From the NCBI GenBank assembly GCA_036674765.1, contig JARVKI010000133.1, forward strand, positions 27,903 through 91,902: a DNA stretch of 64,000 nucleotides. Direction: 5' to 3'. This DNA comes from Seiridium cupressi (taxonomy: Eukaryota; Ascomycota; Sordariomycetes; Amphisphaeriales; Sporocadaceae). The number at the start of each line of letters is the position of its first letter. The stretch's first letter is position 1. Below the pieces are notes generated by a model. That model searched no databases, had not been told where the DNA came from, and saw only the letters and a program-made list of their open reading frames with translations. This document shows, one piece after another, positions 53,986-55,039 of the stretch. Position numbers and translations under genes: made by a program.

Positions 53986-54732
53986 ATGTTGTCACTACGC
54001 CGCCTCTTTGCCGGCGCCGTGCTCCTCCTCGGAGTGAGCATGGTGTTCTTCGCGTCGACCGCCGAAGCTGCCAAGGGCCCCAAGATCACCCACAAGGTCT
54101 ACTTCGATATTACCCAGGGCGATGAGCCCATTGGTCGCATTGTCATGGGTCTCTACGGCAAGACCGTCCCCCAGACTACTGAGAACTTCCGGGCTCTGGC
54201 TACTGGCGAGAAGGGCTTCGGCTACGAGGGGTCTTCTTTCCACAGAGTCATCAAGCAGTTCATGATCCAAGGTGGTGACTTCACCAAGGGTGATGGCACC
54301 GGCGGCAAGTCCAGTATGTCTCGGATTCCGACCCGCCGTGGCACGTCGTAATTACTAATCGTCTAAACTCCCAGTCTACGGTGACAAGTTCCCCGATGAG
54401 AACTTCAAGCTCAAGCACACCAAGAAGGGTCTCCTTTCCATGGCCAACGCCGGCAAGGACACCAACGGCTCCCAGTTCTTCATCACCACTGTTATTACTT
54501 CGTAAGTTATTGGTTGTCAAATGTAAACCATGGCAATAAGAGACTAACACGCGCATGCAGTTGGCTCGATGGTCGTCACGTTGTCTTTGGCGAGGTGCTC
54601 GAGGGTTACGATGTCGTCGAGAAGATCGAGCAGGGTGCCACTAAGCCCGGTGACAAGCCCGTCAAGGAGGTCAAGATCGCCAAGAGCGGAGAGTTGGAGG
54701 TTCCTGCCGAAGGTATTCATGTGGAGCTCTAA
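53986..54732 (+). CDS. cypB: ER cyclophilin B (peptidyl-prolyl isomerase), HVEL isoform
   Basis: Prolyl cis-trans isomerase of the secretory pathway. Exons 53986-54313, 54375-54501 and 54561-54732 give 208 residues. The signal peptide lies at about residues 1-26 (RRLFAGAVLLLGVSMVFF, cleaved near AEAAK). The cyclophilin fold has its key motifs: FHRVIKQFMIQGGDF with the catalytic Arg, GSQFFITT, and SWLDGRHVVFGEV with the cyclosporin-contacting Trp. Read straight through, the last exon ends GIHVEL, an HDEL-like ER-retrieval signal. Introns are 61 and 59 nt. The start is the ATG directly before the signal peptide; the frame opens six codons earlier without ATG. A splice donor inside the GIHVEL codons can instead join to a further exon (54819-55039). 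It is divergent from the uS13m gene and followed by TRM112 on the same strand. Confidence 0.92.
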
Positions 54733-54818
54733 ACACCCTGCTCGTCTCCGAAAAGTGCCACCATGGTCGCTCTCGTGATGCCGCCGAGTCTACATAGCTG
54801 ATTCAACTTGTTCCCCAG

Positions 54819-55039
54819 ATCCTGCCATCTACGGCGGTGCCGAATGGGCTGCGGGATTCTCTAGCGAGGAGGCCGCCAACCCATTCCAAGAGACTGCAGC
54901 TGCCGAGGAGGGCTTCTCTCTTTTCCAGAAAGCTGCTTTCTTCGGTGTCATCCTCGCTGCGGTCGCCATTTACTTGCGCATGACCCGATCAAGGGGAGGC
55001 GAAATAGACAACGTGGCCTACGAGAAGACCATGGCGTAG
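54819..55039 (+). CDS. cypB: Alternative last exon of cyclophilin B (membrane anchor)
   Basis: If the donor GGTATTC at 54713 is used with the acceptor TTCCCCAG ending at 54818 (a 106-nt intron), the ER-retrieval end is removed. Codon GAA then G|AT opens into 72 further in-frame codons to TAG at 55037-55039, for a 275-residue protein. The added part is an acidic linker (EWAAGFSSEEAANPF) followed by a hydrophobic helix (AAFFGVILAAVAIYL), a basic stop-transfer (RMTRSRGG) and a short cytosolic tail. The open frame, its correct phase, the consensus splice sites and the anchor topology argue that it is coding. Its use is inferred; no transcript was seen. Confidence 0.7.

What the first reader, a model, noticed from the sequence alone, without database searches (positions are those of the whole stretch)
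54561..55039. One cyclophilin B gene with two ends: ER-retrieval tail or membrane anchor
Read through, the last exon stops after GIHVEL, an HDEL-like signal. A consensus donor lies inside those very codons (54713), and a CCCCAG acceptor at 54818 joins in phase to 72 codons encoding an acidic linker, a hydrophobic helix and a basic cytosolic tail. The same isomerase could thus be soluble in the ER lumen or anchored in a membrane, selected by splicing of a 106-nt intron. Seen directly: both frames, splice sites and phase. Inferred: that both are expressed.
Basis: partly seen in the sequence, partly recalled or inferred. Interest (0 to 1): 0.75.

Follow-up and report, generated by a model that had tools for sequence, protein, structure and literature searches.

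The report
One isomerase gene, two splice-selected ends
A fungal gene for a protein-folding enzyme of the secretory pathway appears to make either a free form with an ER-return tag or a membrane-anchored form, depending on whether its last intron is removed; many related fungi show the same two ends, so the choice is probably old and used.

Summary
The window (best match a Seiridium cupressi protein, 100% over 275 aa) carries a cyclophilin B gene. Reading through its last exon gives 208 aa ending GIHVEL. Removing intron 54713-54818 (106 nt, phase 1) gives 275 aa with an acidic linker, one hydrophobic helix and a basic tail.

Both ends recur in relatives. Of 276 listed proteins, 107 parsed short ends all begin G-[I/T/S]-[H/R/K]-x-[E/D]-L (106 stop there); all 104 parsed long ends have a hydrophobic segment and an acidic linker. 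In 113 of 113 parsed long or fused tails the first residue has a codon starting with G, as a shared phase-1 exon-end G requires; the second short residue always has a codon that can start with A, as a GTA donor requires.

Five short/long pairs share identical 173-aa cores. RNA-like small-contig ORFs show 49 short and 4 long ends. I read this as a conserved soluble/membrane splice switch of filamentous ascomycetes, which I did not find in the papers I could search. Localisation, regulation and RNA mechanism (retention or intronic polyadenylation) are inferred; no junction reads were seen.

The parts
53986..54313 (+). exon 1: start codon, signal peptide, first part of the cyclophilin domain
   Evidence: hydrophobic N-terminus
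54314..54374 (+). intron 1, 61 nt, GTATGT...CAG
54375..54501 (+). exon 2
54502..54560 (+). intron 2, 59 nt, GTAAGT...CAG
54561..54712 (+). exon 3, common part, ends ...EVPAE plus the first base (G) of the split codon
54712..54732 (+). short end: GGT ATT CAT GTG GAG CTC TAA, GIHVEL and stop; the retrieval-type signal overlaps the splice donor
   Evidence: conserved pattern
54713..54818 (+). optional intron 3, 106 nt, phase 1, GTATTC...CCCCAG, with CTGAT near the 3' end as possible branch site
   Evidence: the branch site is by resemblance only
54819..55039 (+). optional last exon: acidic linker, hydrophobic helix, basic flank, C-terminus YEKTMA, stop
   Evidence: homologous tails

Best explanation
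One cyclophilin B gene makes two secretory-pathway prolyl isomerases with the same signal peptide and catalytic domain. If the last intron stays in the mRNA, translation runs through the donor site into GIHVEL-stop and gives a soluble enzyme that the HDEL receptor would return to the ER lumen. If the intron is spliced out, the chain continues into an acidic luminal stalk, one membrane-spanning helix and a short cytosolic tail ending EKTMA, a type I membrane-anchored enzyme. The first bases of the intron thus serve both as splice donor and as codons of the retrieval signal. Shown here: both frames and junctions in the window, no second close copy seen in this genome, conservation of both ends, protein-level marks of a shared phase-1 donor, both ends in RNA-like ORFs. 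Inferred: ER residence of the short form, topology and compartment of the long form, and that the ratio is regulated.
For: Sequence. Conservation: of 276 listed proteins, 107 parsed short ends, 107 of 107 beginning G-[ITS]-[HRK]-x-[ED]-L; 104 parsed long ends, K at -4 in 100 of 104, hydrophobic segment in 104 of 104 (lowest 1.69), net-negative linker in 104 of 104, net-positive flank in 101 of 104. Shared donor: first long-tail residue in {G,D,E,A,V} in 113 of 113 parsed long or fused tails, against 22-78% (mean 53%) at the next eleven positions; second short residue I 101, T 3, S 3. One gene, two ends: five pairs with identical 173-aa cores; twelve genera with both lengths by the names. Expression: 49 short and 4 long RNA-like entries (my count; endings of the 49 checked); 'variant 2' in the source name of P0221. 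Catalytic residues R, F, M, Q, F, W, H of cyclophilins present (the site list is recalled).
Against: No junction or retained reads of this species were available, and no genomic DNA of another fungus could be fetched, so the intron in relatives is inferred from proteins. The long form is rare among RNA-like entries (4 of 53; alone, which scored only the common part, 1 of 22). Two long entries that the parser dropped do not fit the junction cleanly: P0229 (odd gene model) and P0254 (register unclear); P0132 runs four residues past HVEL. Nine database entries are fused to TRM112, which shows that gene models here are unreliable. The AlphaFold model is poor (mean pLDDT 56).
Confidence: 0.83

Rival explanations
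1. Same two proteins, but the short form arises by cleavage and polyadenylation inside the intron instead of retention, i.e. competition between splicing and an early poly(A) site, as in the immunoglobulin mu gene (recalled).
For: The layout, a donor inside the last common exon and a short terminal exon with linker, helix and tail, resembles that case. Protein data cannot tell the two apart.
Against: None of four A-rich hexamers looked for occurs from 54701 to about 55300, though fungal signals are loose, and this also fails to find the distal site; the intron part behind the stop is only 86 nt.
Confidence: 0.12
2. The intron is always removed in functional mRNA; short entries are unspliced RNA or annotation error and GIHVEL has no function.
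For: Intron retention is the usual kind of alternative splicing reported for fungi (passage of PMC9801653) and can be noise. The long form is annotated in many genomes (29 of 52 complete NCBI-sourced entries with a readable end, my count).
Against: 107 of 107 parsed short ends keep [HRK]x[ED]L in phase; L and stop lie 15-20 bases inside the intron, beyond the donor. Most RNA-like entries are short although both upstream introns must be absent.
Confidence: 0.03
3. The intron is never usefully removed; the long exon is an untranslated remnant.
For: RNA-like entries are mostly short (49 of 53).
Against: Four RNA-like long entries; the long tail keeps its helix, charge pattern and C-terminus across the 104 parsed.
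Confidence: 0.01
4. Relatives have two paralogous genes, one short and one long, so that the mixture in databases is not alternative splicing.
For: The database entries are proteins without genomic context.
Against: Here one gene holds both frames and the seven other cyclophilin loci compared are distant. Five pairs have identical cores, which paralogues would hardly keep.
Confidence: 0.01

Closest known systems
Fungal cyclophilin B, group G of Pemberton 2006 (PMC1618848; passages and section 7 part 1 of 3 read)
   Same: Signal peptide and single cyclophilin domain; best solved relative is cyclophilin B.
   Different: In what I read that group is defined by its N-terminal signal peptide; no second C-terminus is mentioned there.
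Cyclophilin A of Neurospora and BCP1 of Botrytis, mitochondrial and cytosolic isoforms (passage of PMC3688495)
   Same: One cyclophilin gene gives two differently located isoforms.
   Different: There the two isoforms go to mitochondria or cytosol; here the C-terminus changes and both forms enter the secretory pathway.
Splicing- or readthrough-dependent peroxisomal signals of fungal enzymes (passages of PMC4207609; Freitag 2012 cited there, not read)
   Same: A C-terminal sorting signal appears only in one mRNA or translation form.
   Different: Peroxisomal signal, not ER retrieval; no membrane anchor as the alternative.
Immunoglobulin mu secreted/membrane switch (recalled, no call)
   Same: Donor inside the last common exon; reading on gives the soluble end, splicing gives linker, helix and short tail.
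   Different: Unrelated protein; the soluble form is secreted, and the choice there involves a poly(A) site, which is not shown here.
Drosophila ninaA, membrane cyclophilin (reference title seen; listing) and yeast Cpr4 with a putative transmembrane domain (passage of PMC1618848)
   Same: A secretory-pathway cyclophilin with a membrane segment.
   Different: Known as single forms of their own genes (recalled); homology of the tails was not tested.

Membership tests
Cyclophilin-type PPIase (PF00160) | domain match above the curated cut-off | tested here: met
   168 bits against 21.7
Cyclophilin-type PPIase (PF00160) | catalytic residues in place | tested here: met
   R87 F92 M93 Q95 F145 W153 H158, invariant over the 37 aligned long forms; site list recalled
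ER cyclophilin B | N-terminal signal peptide | tested here: met
   hydrophobic residues 1-30, best 19-residue mean 2.13; no dedicated predictor was available
ER cyclophilin B | residence in the ER | not testable with these tools
   needs a tagged protein
HDEL-type retrieval signal | C-terminal [HKR]x[ED]L | tested here: met
   HVEL in the window; 106 of 107 parsed short relatives end this way, one has four more residues
HDEL-type retrieval signal | receptor-dependent retrieval | not testable with these tools
   experiment needed
Type I membrane protein (long form) | one hydrophobic helix with positive flank on the C-terminal side | tested here: met
   104 of 104 and 101 of 104 parsed long ends; helix 237-260 in a model of low overall confidence
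Alternative splicing switch | both mRNA forms present in one species | tested here: inconclusive
   identical-core pairs and RNA-like ORFs but no reads and no named species with both
IgM-type splicing/polyadenylation switch | choice between splicing and an intronic poly(A) site | tested here: inconclusive
   no A-rich hexamer among four tried; no RNA ends available

The most novel reading that the evidence does not exclude
A soluble/membrane splice switch for an ER folding enzyme, inherited throughout the filamentous ascomycetes, in which the 5' splice site doubles as the coding sequence of the ER-retrieval signal and is held weak at +5 by the Ile codon; the ratio is set by secretory load, and the tail EK[ST]MA is a cytosolic sorting or docking signal.
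Probability: 0.35. Interest if true: 0.78.

Novelty: new variant of a known kind. Interest (0 to 1): 0.62.

Why it matters
Conserved alternative splicing with a clear protein outcome is, to my knowledge, rarely documented in fungi. Here one intron would choose between a free and an anchored ER isomerase across the filamentous ascomycetes, a group with important protein secretors. It would explain why database cyclophilin B proteins of neighbouring species differ by some 60-90 residues, and it gives a compact test case of one sequence that serves as splice donor and as sorting signal.

Tried and rejected
Fungal DNA from other species: one scan of genome contigs kept 80 of 244 loci, all with prokaryotic record titles; one of viral contigs found no relative. 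AlphaFold of the long form with 37 sequences gave a poor model (mean pLDDT 56; helix 237-260 with block means 67-85) and was not searched further. An exact-pattern search for EKTMA-stop codons in the own genome found this gene alone. An ER-type FKBP of the same genome has an ORF ending HNEL (L091); whether it too has a second end was not followed.

Papers: ten searches. Those aimed at a second end or splicing of fungal cyclophilin B (8, 9, 14, 21, 41) listed no paper that, by title and abstract, treats it; the held library lacks most subscription papers, and Joseph 1999 on A. nidulans cyclophilin B was seen only as a reference. Passages only were seen of PMC3688495, PMC2447506 (reference list), PMC2266714, PMC4207609, PMC2219887, PMC8192932 and PMC9801653; of PMC1618848 passages and section 7 part 1 of 3.

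Rows dropped before counts: of 276 proteins 56 did not fit the parser. Of these 46 lack KGPKIT and look like other cyclophilins; the other ten are three short ends that fit the pattern (P0250, P0260, P0269), four long (P0042, first residue A; P0238, E; P0254, register unclear; P0229, odd model), two truncated (P0261, P0266) and one other (P0185). Each search listed the best 120 of about 8000 matches, so all counts are of listed entries. The 49/4, 21/1 and 29/23 counts were made by me from the printed lists; the query favours long, that short. Class names of taxa are recalled.

Full report
What was claimed and what is there. The coordinates hold: exons 53986-54313, 54375-54501, 54561-54712, then either read-through to the stop at 54732 (208 aa) or a phase-1 intron 54713-54818 and exon 54819-55039 (275 aa). 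The long product is identical over 275 aa to P0001, named peptidyl-prolyl cis-trans isomerase B of Seiridium cupressi. The window lies in an assembly of 45.4 Mb.

Copy number. The PF00160 search of the own assembly listed 15 exon matches. Eight loci were fetched and compared with the long product: among the seven that are not this gene the best local segment is 55% identical. The remaining listed matches were not compared. So both ends belong to one gene here and no close second copy was seen.

Conservation of both ends. Three searches (the best 120 listed of about 8000 each) gave 276 different proteins. A parser anchored on SGE[L]x[V]PxE read 107 short ends, 104 long ends and 9 long ends fused to a TRM112 domain; 56 were not parsed. 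Short ends: GIHVEL 63, GIHAEL 21, GIRAEL 6, GSHAEL 3 and ten rarer forms; P0132 continues for four residues. A basic residue, a freer residue, E or D, then L and stop is the pattern of an HDEL-type signal rather than of a splice donor, because the constrained L and stop lie at bases 15-20 of the intron. Long ends: 104 of 104 have a hydrophobic stretch (lowest best-window value 1.69), 104 of 104 a net-negative linker, 101 of 104 a net-positive flank. K stands at -4 in 100, M at -2 in 71 and A at -1 in 90 of the 104. In an alignment of 37 long forms that K is invariant.

Marks of the shared donor in the proteins. A phase-1 intron shares the exon's last base, here G, as the first base of the split codon in both forms. 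The short codon is then GGT, Gly: 107 of 107. The long codon must be GNN, i.e. V, A, D, E or G: 113 of 113 parsed long and fused tails, while at the next eleven positions the share of these residues is 22-78%, mean 53%. Of the four long entries that were not parsed, two fit (P0042, P0238) and two are unclear or do not fit (P0254, P0229). The donor's A at +3 demands that the next short residue have a codon that begins with A: I 101, T 3, S 3, and no V or L, the common replacements of I. The sequences are related, so I give no probability. This is how the intron can be inferred in species whose DNA I could not fetch. An Ile codon also bars G at donor position +5; introns 1 and 2 of this gene and the TRM112 intron have G there, intron 3 has T.

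Taxa. By the names in the lists, such ends come from Sordariomycetes, Dothideomycetes (Alternaria, Stemphylium, Cryomyces), Eurotiomycetes (Exophiala, Fonsecaea), Lecanoromycetes (Usnea long; cf. Caloplaca and Lepraria short) and Claussenomyces (long); class names are recalled. Twelve genera show both lengths: Colletotrichum, Hypoxylon, Trichoderma, Xylaria, Purpureocillium, Cytospora, Podospora, Lasiosphaeria, Cryomyces, Alternaria, Fonsecaea, Exophiala.

Same core, two ends. Five pairs have identical cores of 173 aa: P0111/P0025, P0156/P0102, P0204/P0205, P0209/P0220, P0251/P0257; four of the five (not P0156/P0102) are also identical in the stretch printed before the core. The first joins an unnamed short lgn contig with the long protein of Lasiosphaeria hispida; the others join entries of unnamed sources or of differently named species or genera, so none is a proven single strain.

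Expression. Introns 1 and 2 are 61 and 59 nt, so an unbroken ORF in a contig of about 1 kb points to spliced RNA, provided that the relatives have these introns and that a caller blind to introns was used (recalled for these sources). By my count the lists hold 49 such short entries (40 of them with a longest contig under 1,500 bases) and 4 long ones (P0066, P0078, P0089, and P0205, for which no contig is given). Some carry what looks like translated 5' leader (P0133, P0162, P0204), as expected from such a caller. In one search alone, which scored only the common part, RNA-like entries are 21 short and 1 long, NCBI-sourced ones 23 short and 29 long. I read this as: the unspliced form is the commoner one in RNA, the spliced one real but rarer. 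P0221 is named 'variant 2' by its source and is short.

Mechanism. Best reading: competition between splicing of a short terminal intron and leaving it in. Because it is the last intron, the early stop has no junction behind it. Intronic polyadenylation is not excluded. A signal peptide plus one helix give a type I orientation with the isomerase in the lumen; which compartment the long form occupies is open. The AlphaFold model is too poor to add more than a helix at 237-260.

Known and new. The enzyme is an ordinary cyclophilin B. The layout works like the IgM secreted/membrane switch (recalled) and, as a splicing-dependent C-terminal sorting signal, like the peroxisomal signals of fungal enzymes (passages of PMC4207609), without being a member of either. 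Five of ten paper searches were aimed at this and listed no report of it, in a library that lacks most subscription papers. Hence: new variant of a known kind.

Noticed in passing
55270-55925 (+): The downstream neighbour is TRM112 with one intron (GTGAGT). Nine listed relatives (P0017, P0021, P0027, P0046, P0048, P0049, P0083, P0085, P0148) are gene models that fuse the long cyclophilin tail to TRM112, with differing joints: the two genes are neighbours in other genera and the models are probably wrong, or transcripts read through.
   Followed up: partly
53152-53529 (-): An ORF on the other strand upstream resembles mitochondrial ribosomal protein uS13 (named from recall, not searched) and would be divergent from the cyclophilin gene.
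   Followed up: no
55020-55037: The C-terminus EK[ST]MA of the long form is strongly conserved (K at -4 in 100 of 104) yet not a KKxx signal; the exact codon pattern for EKTMA-stop occurs once in the genome. Its role is unexplained.
   Followed up: partly
L091 1300-1644 (-): An FKBP-type gene of the same genome has an ORF ending HNEL, so an HxEL end also occurs on another probable ER isomerase here.
   Followed up: no
P0002, P0185 and other long entries: Some entries of 467-503 aa outscore near relatives although their best local alignment covers only part of the query; perhaps repeated cyclophilin domains.
   Followed up: no
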